Shown: positions 7,177-58,051 of the stretch, piece after piece
Numbering within the stretch: the first letter of the stretch is position 1
Layout: the number at the start of each line of letters is the position of its first letter
From: Capillimicrobium parvum
GTDB lineage: Bacteria; Actinomycetota; Thermoleophilia; Solirubrobacterales; Solirubrobacteraceae
Direction of reading: 5' to 3'
DNA length: 64,000 nt
Assembly: GCF_021172045.1 (NCBI RefSeq)
Contig: NZ_CP087164.1
Span: 1,302,001 to 1,366,000, forward strand
Position numbers and translations under genes: made by a program
Notes under the pieces: model-generated
Seen by the model: the letters and a program-made list of their open reading frames with translations, nothing else
What the model was told of the DNA's origin: nothing
Databases searched by the model: none

Positions 7177-8664
7177 TCACGACGGCTGCGCCGCGGAGGC
7201 GGCCGCGGCCGCGTCCGGCTCCGCGACCTTGGCGGCCAGGGCGGACCAGCCGAACCGGCGCAGCGCCTCGACGTCGAGGGGGTCGACGGGCGCGCGCGGG
7301 GAGGCCTCGAGCTGCCGCGCGAACAGCGCGCCCGCGCCAGGCATCGACCCGGGGCCCGCGAGCCGGTAGCGCGGGGGCAGCAGCGGCCCGAACAGCAGGG
7401 GCTCGGTGAGGTCCGGCCAGTCGAGCGGGGCCGGCGCGACGCCGAGCTCCTCGGAGAGCGTCAGCGCCAGCGCGTTGTGGGCGTCCACCGGCGGGCGGGG
7501 CTGCGCGATCACCTGCCGCATCGCCGGTTGCGGGGGCAGCGCCACCTCGCCGCTCCAGACGCCGGCGATCCACCGCGCCTGGAGCTCCAGCAACGGGAAG
7601 TACGGGCCCTGCGCGAGGAACTGGCCGATGACCCCGAGCCCCGGGAGATCCGGGTGGAAGGTTCGCTGGTAGAGCGCGAGGTCCGGTCCGAGGAGACCGT
7701 GGACGTCGCGGCTGAGGTAGGGCAGGTCGACGTCGTACCCGGTCGCGCAGACCATGGCGTCCACGGTGTGCGTCGAGCCGTCGGAGAACGTGACCAGGCG
7801 GCCGTCGATGGACGCGATCCCGGGCGCGCAAACGATGTTGCCGTCCCGGATGTGCCTCAGGTAGTTCTGGCACAGCGACAGGCCCGCGACGAGCAGGTTC
7901 TCGTCCGGCTCCGGCGCGCCGAAGTCCGCGGGATCGCCCGCCACCCGCAGGACGCGCTCGCGCTGGCGCCGGCCCCACTCGTCCGGGGGCAGCATCCGTC
8001 GCTCGAGCGCGCCGAACAGCGTGTACCACTGCCAGTCCGATGACACGCCGTCGACCAGCTTCTCGATGACGTAGCGCGGCTTGCGGAACGCGGAGACCAC
8101 CCGCGTGTGCGGCGCGAGGTCCGACGCGACCTCCAGGCCGCTGACGCCGTTGCCGTAGACGAGCGTGACGCGGTCGCGGAACGGCTCGGCGCCCGGATAG
8201 TCGAACGCGGGGATGACGTCGCCGCGGAAGCGGTCGGCGATCGGTGGCAGCCACGGCTTGCGGAAGCGACCGGACGCGACGACCACGGCCTCAAACGGCT
8301 CGCCGTCGACCGTCCACCCCGGACGCACGTCCATGACGGGCGCACCGAAGCGGATGCGGCCGGACACGCCGAACGCGTCCGCGTAGCTCACCAGGTAGCG
8401 GTGGATCTGCTCGGCCGCCGGATGCAGCGGGTGGTCGTCCGGCGCCGGGAAGTCAGAGAACGCGGTCATCGCGCGGCTGGTGTTCGTGTGCATCCCCGGC
8501 CACACCCCGCTGTGGGGCGCGGCCGTGTGCCACTGGCCGCCGACGGTGTCGCTCGCCTCGAACACCGTGACGTCGAATCCGGCCTGCAGCGCGTGCTTCG
8601 CGGCCACGAGGCCGGCCGGGCCGGCGCCGATGACGGCGATCCGGGCGCCCTCTCGCAGTCTCAC
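7177..8664 (-). CDS. flavin-containing monooxygenase (FMO/Baeyer-Villiger type)
   Basis: 495-residue FAD/NADPH-dependent monooxygenase that would insert oxygen into a ketone or soft nucleophile. The FAD-binding GAGPAG is at residues 14-19 and GGQW follows. A second dinucleotide fold (VYGNGVSGLEVA) lies near residue 170. The signature FxGxxxHxxx(F/Y) is altered: the sequence is FRGDVIPAFDY, with Pro where His is expected. The ATG at 8664 fits the family, whose FAD fold begins within ten residues. It is convergent with the operon at 876-7162. Homologues commonly oxidise cyclic or aryl ketones; the substrate here is unknown. Confidence 0.87.
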   Translation of the reverse strand: MRLREGARIAVIGAGPAGLVAAKHALQAGFDVTVFEASDTVGGQWHTAAPHSGVWPGMHTNTSRAMTAFSDFPAPDDHPLHPAAEQIHRYLVSYADAFGVSGRIRFGAPVMDVRPGWTVDGEPFEAVVVASGRFRKPWLPPIADRFRGDVIPAFDYPGAEPFRDRVTLVYGNGVSGLEVASDLAPHTRVVSAFRKPRYVIEKLVDGVSSDWQWYTLFGALERRMLPPDEWGRRQRERVLRVAGDPADFGAPEPDENLLVAGLSLCQNYLRHIRDGNIVCAPGIASIDGRLVTFSDGSTHTVDAMVCATGYDVDLPYLSRDVHGLLGPDLALYQRTFHPDLPGLGVIGQFLAQGPYFPLLELQARWIAGVWSGEVALPPQPAMRQVIAQPRPPVDAHNALALTLSEELGVAPAPLDWPDLTEPLLFGPLLPPRYRLAGPGSMPGAGALFARQLEASPRAPVDPLDVEALRRFGWSALAAKVAEPDAAAAASAAQPS

Positions 8665-8800
8665 GATCCGACACTACTTCAACGGGCCAGCCGTGTGAGC
8701 GCGGCGCTCATCAGCCGGCGCGGCTGCGCACGACGCGAGCCGGGTACGCGACGATGACGATCATGCGACGCGTGGCCAGACCTGCCCGGGCGGCTCGGCG

Positions 8801-9280
8801 ATGAGCGAAGCCGGGCTCGTCCTCGTCGGCCTGGCGATCGCCACGGGCATCGTCGGGATCGTCGTTCCGGTGCTCCCCGGCGCGGTGCTGGCGTGGACGG
8901 CGATCCTCGTCTGGGCGCTCGTCGACGGTTCGGCGACCGCCTGGGCGGTGCTGGCCGTCGCGACCGTCGCGATCGGCGGGGCCCAGGTCGTCAAGCTCCT
9001 CGTCCCCGGCCGGCGCCTGCGCGACGCGGGCGTCCCGCGCCAGTCCATCGTCGCCGGCGTGCTGCTCGCCGCCGTCGGCTTCTTCGTCATCCCGGTCGTC
9101 GGGTTCTTCATCGGGTTCCCGCTCGGCGTCTACCTCGAGGAGCGGCGGCGCCTGGGCCGGCACGCGTCCGCCTGGCAGTCCACCCGGGAGGCGCTGCGCG
9201 CGATGGGCCTGTCGATCGTCATCGAGCTGTCGGCCACGCTGATCGCATCCGCCGCGTGGCTGGCGGCGGTGCTGGTCTGA
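8801..9280 (+). CDS. DUF456 family small membrane protein
   Basis: 159 residues with about five hydrophobic helices and the glycine-rich pattern typical of DUF456. These are two GxxGxxxPxxPG-like stretches (GIVGIVVPVLPGAVLAW and a second around GFFVIPVVGFFIGFPLG), then a basic cytosolic loop and a last helix. No enzymatic residues are evident and the family's role is not established. Start ATG at 8801; the gene stands alone between a divergent flavin monooxygenase gene and a convergent hydrolase gene. Confidence 0.85.
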   Translation: MSEAGLVLVGLAIATGIVGIVVPVLPGAVLAWTAILVWALVDGSATAWAVLAVATVAIGGAQVVKLLVPGRRLRDAGVPRQSIVAGVLLAAVGFFVIPVVGFFIGFPLGVYLEERRRLGRHASAWQSTREALRAMGLSIVIELSATLIASAAWLAAVLV

Positions 9281-9418
9281 GCCTGCGCGCGGGCGGGCGG
9301 GACTGCCGTCGCCGTGGCCGAGAGGGTGGCGCTCGTGCGGCGACCGAGCAGCAGGATGGGGGACGGGATCACGACTTCCGGTCGACAGCCATCGATCGAC
9401 CCGCGGAGCCGTGCGCGC

Positions 9419-10309
9419 CTACCGCGCAAGCATGGCCGTCGCCACCTCGCCCGCGGCCGCGTCGGGGATCGCCCTCGCGGCCCGTTCGAGTACGAGCAGC
9501 CGCGCATCGGGGATCTCGCGCGCGAGCGCCTCGGCGTTGCCGACAGGGAAGAAGGGGTCGCGGCGACCGTGCACCACCGATGTCGGGATCGCGAGCTCGC
9601 GCAGGCGCTCGCGCCACCGCGGCCGGCAGTTGAGCTTCGAGAACACCAGGCCCATCTGGTTGGCCATCTGCACCGCGGGATTCGTGCCCGGGGTGCGGTC
9701 CCAGATGCGCCCGGCGGTCCTGCGCGCAGCGGCGGGGTCGTCGCCGAGGATCTCCGCAACCGCGGCGGCGTGCTCCGCCACGGCGGCGCGGTCGGACCAG
9801 TCGGGCATCGAACGCGAGAACAGCCGCTCCATCGTCGCCTTGTCATGGTCGGGCAGGTCGTCGTCGACCCGGCCTGGAGCGACGGGCCGCGTTCCGGCGA
9901 GGGTCAGCGCGGAGAACGCGTCAGGGTGGTCGAGCGCGGCGACCTGGGCGACCATCCCGCCGACGCCGATGCCTGCCAGATGCGCCGGCCGATCGTCGAG
10001 TTCGCGGGCCAGCGCCGCGCAGTCCGCTGCAAGATCGCGCAGCGTGTACGCCGGAGCCTTCGGGTCGAGGGTGGTCGACGCCCCGGAATCGCGCAGGTCG
10101 TACCGCACGACGTGGCGCTCGCCGCGCGCGAGCGCCGCGCAGAGCGCGTCGGGCCAGGAGAGCATCGTCGGGCCGCCCGCGAGCAGGACGAGCGACGCTG
10201 TCGCGTCGCCGAAGCGCTCGACCCCGAGCATGACGCCGTTGGCCTCGACCGTCGTCTGCGTGACCCCGTCGAGCCCGGTGCTCTGGCTGGGAGCGACCTT
10301 CTTTCCCAT
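9419..10309 (-). CDS. alpha/beta-hydrolase fold protein lacking catalytic Ser and His
   Basis: Alpha/beta-hydrolase fold with the HG-like loop LLAGGPTMLSW, strand motif VVRYDLRDSG and acid loop VHGRRDPFFP. The nucleophile elbow reads GIGVGG where GxSxGG is expected, so Ser is replaced by Gly. The usual C-terminal GH is replaced by ERAARAIP. The codons for both sites are unambiguous. The protein is therefore probably a pseudoenzyme or ligand-binding protein unless other residues substitute. I prefer the ATG at 10309 because a GGAG lies six bases before it. In-frame ATGs at 10321 and 10360 are alternatives (up to 313 residues). It is convergent with the DUF456 gene and divergent from the RibD-like gene. 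Confidence 0.82.
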   Translation of the reverse strand: MGKKVAPSQSTGLDGVTQTTVEANGVMLGVERFGDATASLVLLAGGPTMLSWPDALCAALARGERHVVRYDLRDSGASTTLDPKAPAYTLRDLAADCAALARELDDRPAHLAGIGVGGMVAQVAALDHPDAFSALTLAGTRPVAPGRVDDDLPDHDKATMERLFSRSMPDWSDRAAVAEHAAAVAEILGDDPAAARRTAGRIWDRTPGTNPAVQMANQMGLVFSKLNCRPRWRERLRELAIPTSVVHGRRDPFFPVGNAEALAREIPDARLLVLERAARAIPDAAAGEVATAMLAR

Positions 10310-10494
10310 CTGCCTCTCCATCTCCAAGTGGTCATTGTTGTCAGGTCCGTCCTTCGCCAAGAGAGACCGCGGAAACCGCTCGAATTCATCGTGCGGTCGG
10401 CGCGAACGGCACTCCGGGTGGTCATCGCACAGCGACGGCGGCCGCCCGCGACGACGACCGATGACTTCACGCGCGGGGCCGGGTCACTACCGAT

Positions 10495-11052
10495 ATGAGC
10501 GAGAGAAAAGTGGTCCTCAAGATGGTCATGTCCCTCGACGGCTTCGTCACCAGCCCCGACGGGACCCATGACTGGATGTTCGAGTGGTTCGGCGACGACT
10601 CGGGTGAGTGGAACCGCCGCGCGCTCGACGAGGCCGGCGTTCACGCGATGGGCCGCCGCAGCTACGAGATCATGGGACCGCACTGGGCCGCGTCGGAGGG
10701 CCCGATCGCCACCGCGATGAACGAGAAGCCGAAGGCCGTCTTCTCCAGCACGCTGGAAAAGGCGGAATGGGGACCGGCCGAGATCTTCGGCGGAGACCTG
10801 GACGCCGAGATCGCGGACCTGAAGGCGCGGGACGACACGGGGACGGTCCTGGTCCACGGCGGCCCCGACTTCGCCAAGTCGCTGACCCGGCTGGGCCTCG
10901 TCGACGAATACCAGCTGACGACGGTCCCGATTGCGATCGGCGCGGGGCGCAGTCCGTTCGCCGATCTGGACGAGCACCTGAGATTCGACGTCGTCGAGGA
11001 GCAACGCTTCCGGAGCGGAGCCCTCGCGCAGATCCTCGTGCCGAAGCGATGA
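10495..11052 (+). CDS. dihydrofolate reductase family protein (RibD C-terminal domain)
   Basis: 185 residues of the RibD C-terminal/DHFR-like fold, which binds NADPH and reduces pterin- or flavin-precursor-like substrates. The N-terminus has KMVMSLDGFVTSPDG, the family's first strand and loop, then GRRSYEIM, VFSSTL, the central VHGGPDFAKSL nucleotide-binding segment and TVPIAIGAGRSPF. In Actinobacteria such stand-alone proteins are common and mostly uncharacterised. A second member of the family lies at 33021-33584, sharing the architecture but not obviously a recent duplicate. The ATG at 10495 is preceded by a long intergenic stretch shared with the divergent hydrolase gene. Confidence 0.88.
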   Translation: MSERKVVLKMVMSLDGFVTSPDGTHDWMFEWFGDDSGEWNRRALDEAGVHAMGRRSYEIMGPHWAASEGPIATAMNEKPKAVFSSTLEKAEWGPAEIFGGDLDAEIADLKARDDTGTVLVHGGPDFAKSLTRLGLVDEYQLTTVPIAIGAGRSPFADLDEHLRFDVVEEQRFRSGALAQILVPKR

Positions 11053-13417: not shown

Positions 13418-14683
13418 TCACCCGCGAACTGCGGGAACGACGATGTGGTCGATGGGCTCTGCGCGCGGGCCATCGGCACACGCCGCCAGGCTCAACGCCG
13501 GGCGGGCGTTCTGAAAGCCGCCGCCTCTGCGGCCGTGTGCGCTGCGCATGACGCGCGGCGACAGGTGGACGAGCACAGCCGCCCCGAACATCCCGGCGAG
13601 GACGAAGCCCAGCCCTGCGAACCCCGCGACGGTGAGCGCCAGCCCGCCGGCCGCAGCCCCGAGCAGGTAGCCGAACTGGTTGGCGGCGGCGCGCATCGAC
13701 ATCACCGCGACCTTGTCCTCGGGTGCGGTGCCCATGCCGACCGAGCTGGCCACCATCGAGCGCCAGCCGTTGACGAACGCCATCGCCGCGAGCACCGCAA
13801 GCGTCAGCGCCGCGGTCGGACGGATGGCGCCGAGCACGAGGACCGCGGCGGCCTGGATCGCCGTCAGGGCGACGAGGAGCCCGGGCGTCGCGCGGGCCGC
13901 ATGGCGGCGGGCGCCGAAGGTCCCGGGCAGCATCGCGACCGCCATGGCGCCGAGCCCGAGCGCGACCGTGGCCGGCGAGAGGCCGTAGCTGTCCAGAAGG
14001 AGCACGCCCGCGTAGGTCAACACTCCCGCCCAGGCCGCGTTGGCCATCAGCTCACCGCCGGCGAAGCGCGCCACGTCGGGGCGTCGCCAGGCCTGCATCG
14101 CGTCGCCGGCGCGCCGTGTTGCGACGTCGGCCGGCCTCAGCCGGACGAGCACACAGGCGACGAGCGCGACCACGGTGGGGACCGCGATCCAGGTCAAGCG
14201 CCAGCTGATTTCGGCGACCGCGCCGACGACGGGCATGCCGGTGATCCAGGCGGCCGGCATCCCGACGATCGCCCACGCGAGGACGTGCGGGCGCTGCGCG
14301 GGAGCCGGCCATTCCCCGGCGGCCGCGATCCCGACCGAGACGAGCAGGCCGATCCCGACACCGAGAACACCCTGGGCGGCGGCCAGCACCGCGAACGTCG
14401 GCGCCGTCGCGCTCGACGCTGAACCGAGCGCGACGAGGACGGCGCCGGCAGCGAGCAGCTCCCGGAGCCCCGGACGCCGGGCCGCCATCGCCAGGAGCAG
14501 GGCGGTCACGCCGCCGGTTGCCCCTGAGATGGAGCGCAGCTGGCCTGCCGTCGCGGCGGAGACGTGGAACTCGCGTGCGACGTCGGCGAGGATCGGCGAC
14601 AGCACGAGCAGCCCCGCCTGCGAGGCGAACATGCAGAGGAAGAGCACGAGGCTCGGTCGGTTGAGGAGACTGCGAGCTGTCAT
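13418..14683 (-). CDS. MFS transporter (drug/metabolite efflux type)
   Basis: 421-residue integral membrane protein with about 12 hydrophobic segments, in the arabinose/drug efflux branch of the major facilitator superfamily. The start is placed at the ATG at 14683 because the first helix (LVLFLCMFASQAGLLVLSP) follows directly. The upstream in-frame extension is Ala/Pro-rich and unlike the family. It is divergent from the OsmC/acyl-CoA dehydrogenase/flavoprotein operon, and the 146-bp intergenic region holds two inverted copies of a GGTAAACG element. This arrangement suggests shared regulation of a pump with a small oxidative gene set. Confidence 0.86.
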   Translation of the reverse strand: MTARSLLNRPSLVLFLCMFASQAGLLVLSPILADVAREFHVSAATAGQLRSISGATGGVTALLLAMAARRPGLRELLAAGAVLVALGSASSATAPTFAVLAAAQGVLGVGIGLLVSVGIAAAGEWPAPAQRPHVLAWAIVGMPAAWITGMPVVGAVAEISWRLTWIAVPTVVALVACVLVRLRPADVATRRAGDAMQAWRRPDVARFAGGELMANAAWAGVLTYAGVLLLDSYGLSPATVALGLGAMAVAMLPGTFGARRHAARATPGLLVALTAIQAAAVLVLGAIRPTAALTLAVLAAMAFVNGWRSMVASSVGMGTAPEDKVAVMSMRAAANQFGYLLGAAAGGLALTVAGFAGLGFVLAGMFGAAVLVHLSPRVMRSAHGRRGGGFQNARPALSLAACADGPRAEPIDHIVVPAVRG

Positions 14684-14715: not shown

Positions 14716-14797
14716 GGTAAACGGCTGGTAGGACGGCGGCCCGCGGCGACGCGCACGGCGCCACCTCCGTCTCACCCGGGTTTGCCTGTCGTTTACC
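14716..14797. promoter_or_regulatory. paired inverted GGTAAACG elements between MFS and OsmC genes
   Basis: GGTAAACG at 14716-14723 recurs in inverted form as CGTTTACC at 14790-14797. The flanks also match (about 15 of 20 positions when the second copy is reversed). The elements lie between the divergent starts at 14683 and 14830 and could be a two-site operator. No regulator gene is immediately adjacent, so the binding protein is unknown. Confidence 0.45.
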
Positions 14798-14829: not shown

Positions 14830-15399
14830 ATGACGATCACCACCTCACCCATCCGCAACGGCATCGACACGGCCCAGATGTACGGGACGCTCGACGCCGT
14901 CAAGGCCAACCCCGGCCTCGCGCCCTTCGAGTTCCGGGTCCGCAACCAGTGGATCGCCGGCACGCACAGCCGCTCGACGATCCACGACTTCTGGGGCGCC
15001 GGCGCGGAAGACGCCTCTCGCGAGACGGCGTTCGAAGTCGACGCCAGCGAGCCGCCCGTCCTGCTCGGCCACAACGAGGCCCCCAACCCCGCCGAGTTCC
15101 TCCTGCACGCCCTCGCCGGCTGCCTGACGCTGACGATCGTCAACGTCGCCGCGGCGCGCAAGGTGACGCTGACGGAGGTCAGCTCGACCCTCACAGGCGT
15201 CCTGGACGCCCGCGGCGCGCTCGGCCTCGACGACGACTACCGCAACGGCTTCACGCAGATTCGCGTGACCTACAAGGTCAAGGGCGAGGCGCCGCCGGAG
15301 AAGCTGCAGGAGATCGTCGACCGCGCGCAGGCACGGTCGGTCGTCTACGACATGGTGACCAACGGCGTGCCGGTCGAGCTGCAGGCGGAGGTCGGCTAG
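14830..15399 (+). CDS. OsmC family protein
   Basis: 189-residue OsmC/Ohr-fold protein. OsmC members reduce organic hydroperoxides with two cysteines. Here the first is present in HALAGCLTLTI, but the second position (usually CPV-like) reads SVVYDMV, so only one conserved cysteine remains, as in the detoxification or YhfA-type branch. The ATG at 14830 follows a GGCCC-rich leader with no clear Shine-Dalgarno; an in-frame ATG at 14782 would add 16 non-conserved residues. It is followed after 2 bp by an acyl-CoA dehydrogenase gene, so the set is probably one operon. Confidence 0.85.
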   Translation: MTITTSPIRNGIDTAQMYGTLDAVKANPGLAPFEFRVRNQWIAGTHSRSTIHDFWGAGAEDASRETAFEVDASEPPVLLGHNEAPNPAEFLLHALAGCLTLTIVNVAAARKVTLTEVSSTLTGVLDARGALGLDDDYRNGFTQIRVTYKVKGEAPPEKLQEIVDRAQARSVVYDMVTNGVPVELQAEVG

Positions 15400-15401
15400 C
15401 C

Positions 15402-16613
15402 ATGTCGATGGAGCTCACAGCCAAGACGCCTGCCGGCCGAGACCTGGTCGCCATCGCCGAGCGGCTCGCCGGGGACCTCTCCGAGCGGGCCGGCGTCCAC
15501 GACCGCGAGGGCAGCTACCCGTTCGAGAGCATCGATGCCCTGCGGCGCGCCGGCTACTTCTCCGCTCCGGTACCCGTCGAGCTCGGCGGCCTGGGCGTGA
15601 GCTCCGTCCACGACGTCATCGTCGCCTCGGGCCGCCTGGCCCGAGGCGACGCGTCGGTCGCGATCGGCGTCAACATGCACCTCGTCGTCGTCCTCAACCT
15701 CGAGCGACGATGGTCGATGGCGCGCGCGTCGGACAACGCCGCGCGCGAACGCGCGTTCGCCGGCTCGCTGAAGGCGATCGCCGCGGAGCACGTCGTGCTG
15801 GCCGCCGCCATGAGCGAGCCCGGCCAGGACCTCACGCGGCCCAGCACCCGTGCGATCCGCACCCAGACCGGATGGCGCATCGACGGTCACAAGATCTTCT
15901 GCACGATGTCACCGGCGGCGACCGCGCTGCTGACCTCGGTGGCATTCGAAACCGACGACGGCGTCGAGCGCTATGGCTACGTCCAGATCCCCGCCGCCAC
16001 CCCGGGCCTGCGGATCAACGACGACTGGGACGCGCTGGGCATGCGCGCCTCGGGCAGCCACTCGGTCACCCTCGAGAACGTCGAGCTGCCGGCCTCCGCG
16101 CTGCGCGGCGGCTTCCCGGCCGGCGACGCGGTGCCGTACCTCGAACGCAACCTGCCCTCCGGGCTCTTCCACGCCTCGGCATCGCTCGGCATCGCCGAGG
16201 CCGCATTCGCCCGGGCGGCCCGGCCGGACCGCGTCGGCGACGACCCGCGGGCGCGCATGCTCGTCGCCGAGTCCGTGATCGACCTGTCGGCGTCGCGCGC
16301 GGTCCTCTCGCGCGCCGCGACGCTGATCGACGAGCACCACGCCGCGAATCCCGCCCGGGACGGCAGCGACGAGGAGATCACCGCGCTGTTCGCCGAGGGT
16401 CAGGCCGCCAAGACCTTCATCAACGAGGCGGCGACGCGTGTCGTCGATCGGTCGCTCGCCCTGTCCGGCGGCGCCGGGTACACCAACGGATCGCCGCTCG
16501 CGCGAGCCTACCGCGACGTGCGGGCGGGCGCGTTCATGCACCCGCTCGGCGCCAACCGCGCGTACAGCTTCCTCGGCGACGTTGCGCTCGGGCGCGCGCA
16601 TGCCCTGCACTGA
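15402..16613 (+). CDS. acyl-CoA dehydrogenase family protein
   Basis: 403-residue FAD-dependent acyl-CoA dehydrogenase/monooxygenase-fold protein. It has an N-terminal helical domain, a middle beta domain with TGWRIDGHKIFCTMSP and DDWDALGMRASGSHSV, and a C-terminal four-helix domain ending in LSGGAGYTNGSPLARAYRDVRAG. The canonical catalytic glutamate is not obvious. The protein could equally be a DszC/hydroxylase-like flavin monooxygenase. It sits between OsmC (2-bp gap) and an FMO-like gene whose start overlaps its end by 14 bp, supporting a common oxidative pathway. Confidence 0.86.
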   Translation: MSMELTAKTPAGRDLVAIAERLAGDLSERAGVHDREGSYPFESIDALRRAGYFSAPVPVELGGLGVSSVHDVIVASGRLARGDASVAIGVNMHLVVVLNLERRWSMARASDNAARERAFAGSLKAIAAEHVVLAAAMSEPGQDLTRPSTRAIRTQTGWRIDGHKIFCTMSPAATALLTSVAFETDDGVERYGYVQIPAATPGLRINDDWDALGMRASGSHSVTLENVELPASALRGGFPAGDAVPYLERNLPSGLFHASASLGIAEAAFARAARPDRVGDDPRARMLVAESVIDLSASRAVLSRAATLIDEHHAANPARDGSDEEITALFAEGQAAKTFINEAATRVVDRSLALSGGAGYTNGSPLARAYRDVRAGAFMHPLGANRAYSFLGDVALGRAHALH

Positions 16614-17844
16614 GATGCGCACGGAGACGGTCATCATTGGCGCGGGCCAGGCGGGCCTCGCACTCAGCCGCCACCTCACCGCCCGAGGGCACGACCACGT
16701 TGTGCTCGAGCGCGGACGGGTCGGCGAGCGCTGGCGCTCCGAGCGCTGGGACTCCCTGAGCCTGCTGACCCCGAACTGGCTCAACCGGCTGCCCTACGCC
16801 GTACCGCTCGCCCATCCGGACGGCTTCCTCGACCGAGAGGGCGTCATCGCGTACCTGGAGTCCTATAGCGCCGGAGCGCCGGTGCGCGAGCGCACGGCGG
16901 TGGTGCGCGTCTCGCCCACGCCCGACGGCTACCACGTCGCCACCGACCGCGGCGACTGGGCGGCGCGCAACGTCGTGATCGCCACCGGCGACTGCGACGT
17001 GCCGCGCATCCCCGACGCGGCAGCCACCGCGCCGCCATCGGTGCACCAGCTGCACGCATCACGGTATCGGCGCCCCGAGCAGCTCCCCGACGGCGGCGTC
17101 TTGGTCGTGGGAGCCGGGCCGTCCGGGCAGCAGCTCGCCGCCGAGCTGCGGCGCGCCGGCCGAGACGTCGCCCTCGCCGTCGGACGCCACGCGCGCACGC
17201 CTCGCACCTACCGGGGACGCGACATCTTCGCCTGGCTGCACGCCCTCGGGCAGCTCGACGTCCACGCCGACGACGTGCCCGATCTCGCGGCCGCGCGGCG
17301 CGCACCGAGCCTCCCCGTGAGCGGGGCGGCCGGCGGCGAGTCGCTCGGGCTCGACCATCTCGCCCGCCTCGGCGTCGTCGTGACCGGCCGCTTCCTGCGA
17401 TTCACGGAGCGCACGGCACTCCTCGCCGACGACCTTGAACACCAGCTGCGCGAGGCCGACCGGCGCCTGTACCGCACGCTGGCCCGGATCGACGATCACA
17501 TCGAGCGCACCGGCGCCCCCGCCGAGCCGGCCGAGACGCTGCCATCGGTCTCGATCCGACCCGGTCCGGAGCGTCTGGCGCTCGGCACCGAGCTTCGCAC
17601 TGTGCTCTGGGCCACGGGGTACGGGCGCGCGTATCCCTGGCTCGACGTTCCGGTGCTCGACGCCGCCGGCGAGCTGGCGCATCGCGAGGGGATCACCGCC
17701 GCTCCCGGCCTCTTCGCGGTCGGCCTGCGCTTCCAACGCACCCGCAAGTCACACTTCCTCGGCGGCGTCGGAGACGACGCCGCCCACATCGCCGCGGCGA
17801 TCGCCGAAGCGCGGTGCGAGTCTCGGCTGGCGCGCGCAGCGTGA
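16600..17844 (+). CDS. FAD-dependent oxidoreductase (CzcO/FMO-like)
   Basis: 414 residues (409 from the next ATG at 16615). Two Rossmann motifs are visible, ETVIIGAGQAGLALSRHL at the N-terminus and VLVVGAGPSGQQLAAEL in the middle, then LWATGYGRAYPWLDVP, the family's ATG-type segment. The early WRSERWDSLSLLTPNW segment is shared with putative flavoprotein monooxygenases near transporters. The start at 16600 overlaps the acyl-CoA dehydrogenase gene, so translation is probably coupled. It is convergent with the large regulator gene ending at 17857. Confidence 0.86.
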   Translation: MPCTEMRTETVIIGAGQAGLALSRHLTARGHDHVVLERGRVGERWRSERWDSLSLLTPNWLNRLPYAVPLAHPDGFLDREGVIAYLESYSAGAPVRERTAVVRVSPTPDGYHVATDRGDWAARNVVIATGDCDVPRIPDAAATAPPSVHQLHASRYRRPEQLPDGGVLVVGAGPSGQQLAAELRRAGRDVALAVGRHARTPRTYRGRDIFAWLHALGQLDVHADDVPDLAAARRAPSLPVSGAAGGESLGLDHLARLGVVVTGRFLRFTERTALLADDLEHQLREADRRLYRTLARIDDHIERTGAPAEPAETLPSVSIRPGPERLALGTELRTVLWATGYGRAYPWLDVPVLDAAGELAHREGITAAPGLFAVGLRFQRTRKSHFLGGVGDDAAHIAAAIAEARCESRLARAA

Positions 17845-17856
17845 GCCAGGCCGGTC

Positions 17857-20800
17857 TCAGCCTTCGAGCGCCTGCCTGAGGTCGGGCAGTCCGCCGGTGA
17901 TGTTGCGGCGCAGCCGCTGCGCGGCCTCGAGGTGATCCTGGCGCTCGAGCGCCTCGACGATGCCGTCGTGCTGCGCCGCCGAGCGCTCGATCCGCGCCGG
18001 ATCGAGCATGTAGGTCTGCTCGTAGCGCAGGAGCGCCTTCTTGAGCGGCCGCAGCGCGTCGAGCAACGGCTCGTTGCCGCATCGAGCTGTGAGCTGCATA
18101 TGGAAGTCGTCGTCCGCGAGAATGGCGGCCGAGGGATCGTGCCGCGCGGCGCGAAGGCGCTGGTTCGCGCTTCGCAGGACGGCGATCGCGCCTTCATCGA
18201 ACGGCGGCGCCTGCCGGACCGCGATGGTCTCCAGCACGAGAACGAGCGGATAGAGCTCCCGGGCCTCGGACATCGCAAGCCGCGCCCGGCGGAACACGCC
18301 GTCGCCCGCCCGCTCGAGAAGCCCGCCACGGGCGAGCGCGTCGAGGGTCTGCGCCGCCGCCTCGGTCGTCACGTCGATCTGGGCAGCGACGGTGGGAGCG
18401 TCGGCCGTGTCGCCGGCCGCCCTGAGCACGCCAGCGAGCGATCGCGCGTCGATGTCGTAGCAGCATCGCGCGGCGCCGGCCAGTTGCGTCATCCAGTCGA
18501 GCACGGCCGGCAGCGCGACACCGGCAACCTGCTCGGCGTGGGGGACGTCCTCCCAGAGGTCGAGGACGCGCTCGAGATGGCGCAGAGCCTCGCTCAGGCC
18601 GGACACCGCCTCGGCCTCCTGCGCCGCGCGAAGCGAGGCGGTGAGCGCCTCCACCGGCCGCCCGGCCGCGATCCAGTGCTCTGACATCTCGGCGGCGACC
18701 GTGCGACGGCACGCCGCCAGCGCCGGCTTCTCGCTGAGAGCGTTCGCGAGGCGCTCATGGACCTCCTCGCGCTCGCCCGGCAGTAGCGTGGCGTATGCCG
18801 CCTCGGCCAGGAGCGCGTGACGGAAGCGGTAGGTGCCGCTCGCGCGATCCGGGACCATCAAGTCGTGGTCGACGGCCTGGCGCAGCGCCTCGATGACCAC
18901 CCGATCGGGCAGGTCCAGCGCAGCGCTCAGCAGCGCGTGGGAAGCCTGCCTGCGCACGGCGGCGGCCGCGCGGAGGACCGACCTGCTCGTCGCGTCGAGC
19001 CGCACAAAGCCGGTCAGCAAGACGTCGCGGAGCAGGCGCGGAAGGGTCTGCTCGCCGCGCAGCGCCGCCGCGAGGAGCTCTTGGGCGAAGAACGGGTTGC
19101 CCTGTGCACGGGCGCAGACGCCCTGGGTCACTTCGGCCGGAACCGGGCTGTCGCTGTTGCGGGCGAGCAGGGTCTCCAGCTCGTCGTCGCTGAGCGGCCC
19201 GAGCTCGATGGCCTCCACGAGGCCGGCGCGCCGGAGCTCCGTCCACAGCCGAGTCGCGGAGTCGTGGGCCTGAACGGTGTCAGAGCGCCAGCTCGCCAGC
19301 AGCATGATCGGCCGGTCGCGGACCGCGTGGGCCAGAAACGTGAGGAGATCGAGCGTCGAGCCGTCGGCCCAGTGAAGGTCCTCGATCACGAGAACGACGG
19401 GCGCGGTGGCGCTGAGGCGACCGAGCAGCACGGTGATCTCCTCGAAGAGCTGCAGCCTCGACTCTCCGGCGTGGCGCTCTGCGGGCACGGCGGACGGCGC
19501 TTCGGACGTCGCCGGAACCAGGCGACGCAGCTCGTGCAGGCCGTCGATCTTCGCGGAGTCCCGCAAGGGCCGCAGCGCCTCGATAAGTGGGACGTAGGGC
19601 AGCGCGGCACCGAGGAGGTCGATGCAGCGCCCGGTGAGCACCGTCGCGCCCCGGGCACGGGCCCGCTCGGCCAGCTCGGCGGCGAGGCGAGTCTTGCCGA
19701 TGCCGGCCGGGCCGGCGATCAGCATCGCGGTACCCCGCCCGGCGGCGGCGGCGGAGAGCGCGCGCTCGAGTCGCGCCAGCTCCTCCTCGCGGCCCACGAG
19801 GCATTCCGGAGCGGGAGCGGGGAGCGGACGAGCAGGCCGAGCGGCTGAGTACCGCTCGCGCGCCGGCGCCTCGACCGGAGCGATCTCCAGCGCGGGATCC
19901 TGGTTGAGGATCTGGTACTCGAGCTCGCTCAAAGCCGCGGGCGGATCGATTCCGAGCTCGTCCTGCAGCCCGCGGCGGAACTCGCGATAGACGGTGAGCG
20001 CCTCGGCGTGGCGTCCGGCGCGGTAGAGCGCCAGCATGAGCTGGCCGCAGAGGCGCTGGCGAAGCGGGTGGCTCAGGACGAGCGACCGCAACTCGCCGAC
20101 CACGTCGCCGTGCTGCCCCAGCGCGAGCTCGGCCTCGATGCGATCCTCGACGGTGGCAAGGCGCAACTCCTCGATGTGCGCAGCCTCCACGACGGCGAAC
20201 GGCTGCGAGAACTCGGCCAACGCCGGCCCGCGCCAGAGAGCCAGCGCGGCGCGAAGCCGATCGGCGGCGGCCGCGGCATCACCCTCGGCGAGCGCGGTCC
20301 GGGCCTCCGCCCGAAGCCGCTTGAAGTGCAGGAGATCGACCGCCTCAGGCGCGACCTCGAGGGCGTAGCCGGGCGGCCGCGTGCGGAGCACATCGCTCGG
20401 CAGGACCTTGCGAAGCTGGGACACGTAGATGTGCACCATCTTCACCGCCGTTGACGGGACGTCCTCGCCCCAGAGGGCGTCCACCAGCACATCGACGGGG
20501 ACGGTGCGATTGGGCTCGAGCAGCAGCCGAGCCAGCAGGGCCCGCCGCTGGTTACCGCCCGTGGCGACGGACGCGCCTCGTTGGAGCACGTCGAGCGGAC
20601 CGAGGATGCGGAACTCCGTCCGGTGGCTGGCCAGGTCCACCGACGTCGCCGCCGCCAAGCGCCCTGGCGGCGGGCCCGACTCCGCCGGTGGCGCCTGCGC
20701 CGTGCGGATGGCGGAGAGGGTCACGCCGCCACGTTCCCGCCTCGAACGCGAGACATCCAGGGGGCTGGCTCGCGTGACGACAAGTTGCTGTCCGCCTCCC

Positions 20801-20859
20801 CACGGTGCGGGTAGCCGCACCGTGACCGGCACGCGCACGCAAGCCGACACCCCGGACAC
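17857..20859 (-). CDS. SARP/BTAD regulator - AAA ATPase - GntR-type FCD fusion protein
   Basis: One uninterrupted 1000-codon frame. Residues about 82-170 are an OmpR/SARP winged helix (FRILGPLDVLQRG...GYALEVAP), about 175-325 a BTAD tetratricopeptide domain, and about 353-720 a LuxR/MalT-type ATPase (Walker A GPAGIGKT at 383-390, Walker B VVLVIEDLHWAD near 490). The usual TPR tail is cut short. From about 800 a winged-helix-like segment (VTTEAAAQTLDALARGGLLERA) leads into an FCD domain, normally the ligand domain of FadR-type GntR repressors. Its metal-site residues fit as Asp916, His920, His964 and Asn986 (normally His). The start is uncertain; a GTG at 20724 would remove 45 unconserved residues. 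It lies convergent with the OsmC operon and may sense an acyl or carboxylate ligand. Confidence 0.85.
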   Translation of the reverse strand: MSGVSACVRVPVTVRLPAPWGGGQQLVVTRASPLDVSRSRRERGGVTLSAIRTAQAPPAESGPPPGRLAAATSVDLASHRTEFRILGPLDVLQRGASVATGGNQRRALLARLLLEPNRTVPVDVLVDALWGEDVPSTAVKMVHIYVSQLRKVLPSDVLRTRPPGYALEVAPEAVDLLHFKRLRAEARTALAEGDAAAAADRLRAALALWRGPALAEFSQPFAVVEAAHIEELRLATVEDRIEAELALGQHGDVVGELRSLVLSHPLRQRLCGQLMLALYRAGRHAEALTVYREFRRGLQDELGIDPPAALSELEYQILNQDPALEIAPVEAPARERYSAARPARPLPAPAPECLVGREEELARLERALSAAAAGRGTAMLIAGPAGIGKTRLAAELAERARARGATVLTGRCIDLLGAALPYVPLIEALRPLRDSAKIDGLHELRRLVPATSEAPSAVPAERHAGESRLQLFEEITVLLGRLSATAPVVLVIEDLHWADGSTLDLLTFLAHAVRDRPIMLLASWRSDTVQAHDSATRLWTELRRAGLVEAIELGPLSDDELETLLARNSDSPVPAEVTQGVCARAQGNPFFAQELLAAALRGEQTLPRLLRDVLLTGFVRLDATSRSVLRAAAAVRRQASHALLSAALDLPDRVVIEALRQAVDHDLMVPDRASGTYRFRHALLAEAAYATLLPGEREEVHERLANALSEKPALAACRRTVAAEMSEHWIAAGRPVEALTASLRAAQEAEAVSGLSEALRHLERVLDLWEDVPHAEQVAGVALPAVLDWMTQLAGAARCCYDIDARSLAGVLRAAGDTADAPTVAAQIDVTTEAAAQTLDALARGGLLERAGDGVFRRARLAMSEARELYPLVLVLETIAVRQAPPFDEGAIAVLRSANQRLRAARHDPSAAILADDDFHMQLTARCGNEPLLDALRPLKKALLRYEQTYMLDPARIERSAAQHDGIVEALERQDHLEAAQRLRRNITGGLPDLRQALEG

Positions 20860-57505: not shown

Positions 57506-58051
57506 GGCGCACTCCTCTCGAAACAGCATATGGGCGCCGAGCGGCGCCGTCGTTTTATAGGTCTCCCGAGGGCCACCTACGCTGCTGCTAGGAGCGCGAG
57601 CGTCGATCGAGGCGGGGCGGAATTGAGCCGTTCGTCGAGCTCCAGAAGTGCCGCGCACTGATCTGCTTCTACGACCTACCCTACTCCCTTGTGCGGGACC
57701 GCGCCAAAACCTAAACATTGCGGCGACTACTGCTTTCCATGCGTTGCGAGAGAGTCGCCCCCAGCTGCGCAGCGCTGCTGCTTTCGCGTGAAAGCAGGAG
57801 CAACCAGGTCGCCGCTCGTACATACGCCGCCGCTGGTCGTGTGGTGCGGGCCACGTAGGAGCACCATGAGCCGACCGCGCCGCCCGCCCAGCCGCCGCAA
57901 CACGGTCACTCGTCAGCCTCCGCTGGGGAGCACTCGTTTGTCCTTGCCCTGTCCACCCGCCGAGCGGCGTCGGCTGTCGTGGGGAGAGATCGCGCGGCCC
58001 CGTGGTGACGTCGTCTCGTACGGGCCGCCGGGCTGATCGACTCGACTCGAC
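57506..58051. other. 546-bp non-coding region, locally lower GC
   Basis: Between the DUF4389 gene start and the hydrolase gene's 3' end. The part around 57550-57780 is visibly less GC-rich than its surroundings (ACCTACCCTACTCCCTTGTG; AACCTAAACATTG), which can mark regulatory DNA or a foreign remnant. A plus-strand stretch [19 protein letters not shown] is short and unidentified. No repeats or RNA gene seen. Confidence 0.4.

What the first reader, a model, noticed from the sequence alone, without database searches (positions are those of the whole stretch)
17857..20859. SARP-BTAD / ATPase / GntR-FCD triple fusion regulator
One uninterrupted 1000-codon frame joins a SARP DNA-binding and BTAD half, an LAL-type ATPase and a C-terminal winged-helix-like segment plus FCD ligand domain with Asp916, His920, His964 and Asn986 in the metal-site positions. 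FCD domains normally sit in small GntR repressors. Having them at the end of a SARP-ATPase would give a regulator with two DNA-binding modules and a metabolite sensor.
Basis: partly seen in the sequence, partly recalled or inferred. Interest (0 to 1): 0.75.

Follow-up and report, generated by a model that had tools for sequence, protein, structure and literature searches.

The report
SARP-ATPase regulator with metabolite-sensor tail
A soil-type actinobacterium carries a genuine three-part gene switch in which a small-molecule-sensing domain, normally found in compact repressors, has been attached to a large ATP-driven activator, while the sensor's old DNA-binding part is fading away.

Summary
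The fusion is real. The gene is on the minus strand, 20724-17857 (955 aa; the 1000-codon frame includes about 45 probably untranslated codons). It encodes SARP wHTH-BTAD, an AAA_16 ATPase of LuxR-LAL ancestry, then wHTH-FCD (FCD E=2.4e-16; the AlphaFold model matches full-length GntR-FCD structures, Z about 19). An assembly artefact is excluded: an orthologue from another genus of the same family (67-70% identity, split over two contigs at one codon) has the ATPase tail running in frame into the FCD, and all modules show dN/dS 0.29-0.43. The FCD keeps D916/H920/H964 (the DgoR-type metal triad) but lacks the usual ligand-binding Arg. Most likely mechanism: a SARP-ATPase activator gated by an FCD sensor, acting on the linked MFS transporter and OsmC operon, whose shared 146-bp promoter region holds three GTTTRCC heptamers, two spaced as SARP half-sites. 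New variant of the SARP-LAL kind, seen in two genomes.

The parts
17857..20724 (-). SARP-BTAD / LAL-type ATPase / wHTH-FCD regulator gene, probable GTG start at 20724 (codon 46 of the 1000-codon frame)
   Evidence: Open frame; start by codon-position GC and by the aligned GTG of the orthologue
20365..20619 (-). SARP (OmpR-type) winged-helix DNA-binding domain, residues 81-165
   Evidence: Trans_reg_C hit; AfsR structures match 77-424; 18 of 18 conserved columns kept
19906..20340 (-). BTAD, residues 174-318
   Evidence: Pfam BTAD E=3.4e-45
18445..19803 (-). ATPase and helical extension, residues 353-805; Walker A GPAGIGKT 383-390, Walker B VVLVIED 488-494
   Evidence: AAA_16 E=5.6e-31; groups with non-SARP LAL ATPases in the tree; Walker residues kept
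18286..18420 (-). Degenerate GntR-type wHTH, residues 814-858
   Evidence: Fold predicted and matched; 6 of 19 conserved positions kept; deleted in the orthologue
17860..18276 (-). FCD domain, residues 862-1000
   Evidence: Pfam FCD E=2.4e-16; Foldseek and VIA matches; dN/dS 0.33
18100..18114 (-). Metal-site residues D916 and H920
   Evidence: Alignment columns D/N and H
17968..17970 (-). Metal-site residue H964
   Evidence: His in 64 of 70 rows
17902..17904 (-). N986 in place of the usual fourth His
   Evidence: His in 52, Asn in 6 of 70 rows; Asn also in both G281 homologues
13418..14683 (-). MFS transporter, conserved neighbour of the regulator
   Evidence: MFS_1 E=3.2e-24; 73% identical gene 49 bp after the orthologue
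14716..14797 (+). Three GTTTRCC heptamers in the MFS/OsmC intergenic region; GTTTGCC-N4-GTTTACC at 14780-14797 is a candidate SARP operator
   Evidence: chosen after looking, so only a candidate
14830..17844 (+). OsmC - acyl-CoA-dehydrogenase-like - flavin-monooxygenase-like genes, convergent with the regulator and possible targets
   Evidence: Pfam and NCBIfam; paralogous triad elsewhere in the genome

Best explanation
It is a SARP-type transcriptional activator whose ATPase is gated by a C-terminal FCD sensor. The SARP wHTH and BTAD bind heptameric direct repeats and recruit RNA polymerase, as in AfsR. The LAL-type ATPase is the ATP-dependent switch. The FCD domain, which stands where LAL proteins have their TPR-LuxR half, binds a small ligand at a D916/H920/H964 metal site and relays its state to the ATPase rather than to its own wHTH, which has become redundant. 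Its most likely targets are the linked MFS transporter and the divergent OsmC operon. Shown: domain order, an orthologue with the same order, selection on every part, wHTH degeneration and loss, intact Walker and metal-triad residues. Inferred: metal and ligand binding, gating of the ATPase, the operator, the targets, and activation rather than repression.
For: Domain hits; orthologue with ATPase tail and FCD in one frame and with dN/dS 0.29-0.43 in all modules; wHTH keeps 6 of 19 conserved positions while FCD keeps 14 of 17 and the SARP domain 18 of 18; wHTH deleted in the orthologue; D/H/H triad as in DgoR; conserved MFS neighbour; heptamer cluster between MFS and OsmC; AfsR and SARP-LAL precedents (PMC10972967).
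Against: No ligand, metal or DNA binding was measured. The conserved ligand-binding Arg is absent (Val873). The heptamer site was picked after looking and has no counterpart upstream of the G281 regulator. Only two genomes have the fusion, and in G281 it is split over two contigs.
Confidence: 0.6

Rival explanations
1. One reading: the C-terminal wHTH is a working second DNA-binding module, so one protein reads two kinds of DNA site and a metabolite.
For: A complete winged helix is predicted with good confidence and matches full-length GntR structures over wHTH and FCD.
Against: SxTPVREAL reads TTEAAAQTL, 6 of 19 conserved positions kept; no Pfam GntR hit; 41-residue in-frame deletion of the wHTH in the orthologue.
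Confidence: 0.1
2. The FCD tail is only a dimerisation module; it neither binds a ligand nor senses anything, and the ATPase answers to some other signal.
For: FCD domains pair in GntR regulators (general knowledge); the ligand-binding Arg is lost here and in both homologues, and the fourth metal His is Asn.
Against: D916, H920 and H964 are kept in the orthologue and in the standalone homologue, and the same three residues suffice for a metal site in DgoR (PMC7674646).
Confidence: 0.25
3. Assembly error or chance frame joining a SARP-LAL gene to a GntR-FCD gene.
For: No second fusion in sampled class genomes or among the 80 best database relatives.
Against: An independent MAG of another genus has ATPase tail and FCD in one frame on one contig; purifying selection on all modules; flat codon-position GC at the junction.
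Confidence: 0.02

Closest known systems
SARP-LAL regulators (PimR, SanG, PolR, FilR)
   Same: N-terminal SARP and BTAD followed by a LAL-type ATPase half without a LuxR HTH (PMC10972967)
   Different: None is described with a GntR-type wHTH-FCD tail; no TPR hit after the ATPase here
AfsR
   Same: SARP-BTAD-ATPase order; residues 77-424 match the solved AfsR chains 8k60 and 8jke
   Different: C-terminal half unrelated; NCBIfam AfsR scores 240 bits against a cut-off of 1430
LuxR-type LAL proteins
   Same: Closest relatives of the ATPase, 42% identity
   Different: They lack SARP and end in TPR and GerE
GntR/FadR-subfamily FCD regulators (VanR, McbR, PmiR, TM0439, DgoR)
   Same: wHTH-FCD fold over residues 799-1000, Z 16-20; D/H/H metal triad as in DgoR
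   Different: Here at the end of a SARP-ATPase, with a degenerate wHTH and no ligand-binding Arg
Standalone wHTH-FCD protein of G281 (L266:9516-10148)
   Same: 46-49% identical, D/H/H/N metal set, no GntR contact signature; its Met aligns near residue 806 of the fusion
   Different: Not fused; keeps more of the wHTH core

Membership tests
SARP-LAL regulators | N-terminal SARP DNA-binding domain and BTAD | tested here: met
   Pfam Trans_reg_C and BTAD; 18 of 18 conserved DNA-binding-domain columns
SARP-LAL regulators | LAL-type ATP-binding half with Walker motifs | tested here: met
   AAA_16; tree position among LAL ATPases
SARP-LAL regulators | No LuxR HTH at the C-terminus | tested here: met
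   No GerE hit
SARP-LAL regulators | Binding to heptameric direct repeats | not testable with these tools
   A candidate GTTTGCC-N4-GTTTACC site exists; binding needs an experiment
LuxR-type LAL | C-terminal LuxR/GerE HTH after a TPR region | tested here: not met
   Absent here, present in the ATPase's closest relatives
GntR superfamily, FadR (FCD) subfamily | FCD domain | tested here: met
   Pfam E=2.4e-16 over cut-off; fold matches
GntR superfamily, FadR (FCD) subfamily | GntR-type DNA-binding wHTH with its conserved signature | tested here: not met
   No Pfam GntR hit; 6 of 19 conserved positions
Metal-binding FCD | Asp/Asn-His-His-(His) metal ligands | tested here: met
   D916, H920, H964 present, fourth is Asn; metal binding itself not testable here

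The most novel reading that the evidence does not exclude
An FCD sensor has been transplanted from small repressors onto a SARP-ATPase activator and now passes its metal/ligand state in cis to the ATPase instead of to a wHTH. The wHTH is caught in stages of loss: intact in GntR-FCD proteins, signature lost in a standalone homologue, decayed in this fusion, deleted in the orthologue.
Probability: 0.5. Interest if true: 0.62.

Novelty: new variant of a known kind. Interest (0 to 1): 0.5.

Why it matters
What SARP-LAL and LAL regulators sense is mostly unknown, because their TPR halves give few clues. Here the sensor slot holds a domain family with defined ligand pockets, so the signal input to a SARP-ATPase becomes testable with purified FCD and candidate metabolites. 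The two orthologues and the standalone homologue also show how a DNA-binding repressor can turn into a pure sensor module.

Tried and rejected
Assembly chimera: rejected by the G281 orthologue, selection and flat codon usage. Second working DNA-binding domain: weakened. A widespread family: not found in 249 class genomes, in all 232 genomes of the order (only G000 and G281), or in two phylum samples. G059, whose match reached residue 995, has no FCD hit; G561, the best full-length SARP-ATPase relative, has none either. The G032 FCD-only protein (L032, 36%) lacks a wHTH match and the first metal His; a distant relative only. The first genome-contig scan found no relative. Plasmid tblastn gave only ordinary GntR proteins. 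Full-length alignment A2 misplaced the FCD rows and was not used. Sigma-70 scans found nothing in the two promoter regions. No paper in the library holds SARP, BTAD and FCD domain together.

Full report
OBSERVATION. The frame at 17857-20859 is open on the minus strand. Pfam finds BTAD, AAA_16 and FCD far above their cut-offs, and Trans_reg_C at the N-terminus. The start is probably GTG at 20724: codons 1-50 have atypical codon-position GC, and the orthologue is similar only from about codon 46 onward and has an aligned GTG there.

ONE GENE, NOT AN ARTEFACT. Codon-position GC is flat across the ATPase/FCD junction. Searching all 232 available genomes of the order with the C-terminal 219 residues gave close matches in only one genome beside the window's own: G281, a MAG from another genus of the same family. 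G281 holds residues 42-703 at 67% identity on contig C284, up to the contig edge, and residues 704-999 at 68-70% starting at the edge of contig C214, with ATPase tail and FCD in one frame. I infer one gene cut by a contig break; reads joining the contigs were not available. Pairwise dN/dS is 0.29 (SARP), 0.43 (AAA), 0.33 (ATPase tail) and 0.33 (FCD), with dS about 0.6, so every part is under purifying selection.

MOSAIC ORIGIN. The SARP half is about 50% identical to the SARP halves of SARP-ATPase proteins, while the ATPase is about 42% identical to LAL proteins that have no SARP and end in TPR-LuxR, against about 32% for SARP-linked ATPases. A maximum-likelihood tree puts the ATPase beside 40 non-SARP LAL ATPases (support 85/98). 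Similarity to LALs stops at residues 780-820, where the wHTH-FCD begins. In G281 a standalone wHTH-FCD protein (46-49%) has a Met aligned near residue 806, which suggests that a small gene was joined near its start to a truncated LAL (inference).

THE C-TERMINAL wHTH IS FADING. The predicted structure is a winged helix followed by an all-helical FCD, mostly at pLDDT 88-98, best matched by full-length GntR-FCD structures (Foldseek; VIA Z 19.6, 2.5 A over 197 residues of 7u5q). Of 19 wHTH positions conserved in 70 aligned rows the protein keeps 6 (median 16), while it keeps 14 of 17 conserved FCD positions (median 13). The recognition-helix signature S-R-T-P-V-R-E-A-L reads TTEAAAQTL here, Pfam GntR is not matched, and the orthologue lacks 41 residues here, in frame. 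By contrast the SARP DNA-binding domain keeps 18 of 18 conserved columns. The idea of two DNA-binding modules therefore loses most of its support.

THE SENSOR. D916, H920 and H964 correspond to the three metal ligands D146, H150 and H195 of DgoR (PMC7674646; correspondence by the alignment of the D-x3-H motif and the second His). The fourth usual His is Asn here, in the orthologue and in the standalone homologue; Asn occurs in 6 of 70 rows. The Arg four residues before the conserved Glu, equivalent to HypR Arg92 and CitO Arg97 (PMC6608401), is Val here and Ala in both homologues. A metal site is plausible; the ligand class is unknown.

CONTEXT AND TARGETS. In G281 an MFS transporter 73% identical to the one at 13418-14683 lies about 49 bp downstream of the regulator on the same strand. 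In the window these two genes also share a strand, but an OsmC / acyl-CoA-dehydrogenase-like / flavin-monooxygenase-like triad on the other strand lies between them. The genome has a second copy of the triad (55-60%) flanked by a SARP-ATPase-alpha/beta-hydrolase protein and a SARP-ATPase-TPR protein, and G014 has a LuxR LAL beside FMO-OsmC. The 146-bp MFS/OsmC promoter region holds three of the six GTTTRCC sites in 64 kb, two of them as a direct repeat with a 4-nt spacer, the layout described for the SARP-LAL PimR (PMC10972967). The repeat occurs once in the genome at up to one mismatch, but it was chosen after looking, and no counterpart was found upstream of the G281 regulator.

MECHANISM. 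The best reading is a SARP activator whose ATPase switch takes its input from an FCD domain. AfsR supplies the precedent for ATPase-dependent activation (PMC10972967). Direct evidence stops at architecture, conservation and synteny; ligand, metal, ATPase gating, operator and sign of regulation are inferred.

NOVELTY. SARP-LAL is a known kind; a wHTH-FCD tail on it was not found in the papers searched or in any other genome examined. It is a new variant, narrow in distribution (two genomes of one family).

Noticed in passing
L237:5746-7851 (G000:C1, about 1617.7-1619.9 kb): A 701-aa SARP-BTAD / AAA_16 / alpha-beta-hydrolase fusion convergent with a second OsmC-AcDH-FMO triad; another exotic C-terminal module on a SARP-ATPase in the same genome.
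   Followed up: partly
L119:784-2766 (G000:C1:2116079-2117152 and flanks): One 661-aa frame holding two wHTH-FCD units in tandem, a possible double GntR-FCD regulator.
   Followed up: partly
window 14830-17844 and L237 about 7811-10895: Two paralogous OsmC / acyl-CoA-dehydrogenase-like / flavin-monooxygenase triads (55-60% identical) in one genome, both next to SARP-ATPase genes.
   Followed up: partly
L032:1261-1953 (G032): FCD-only protein without a recognisable wHTH and with the first metal His lost, beside an OmpR-type gene.
   Followed up: partly
window 57730-57797: Clustered AAAGCAG-type heptamers, the only other tight triple of a rare heptamer found in the window.
   Followed up: no
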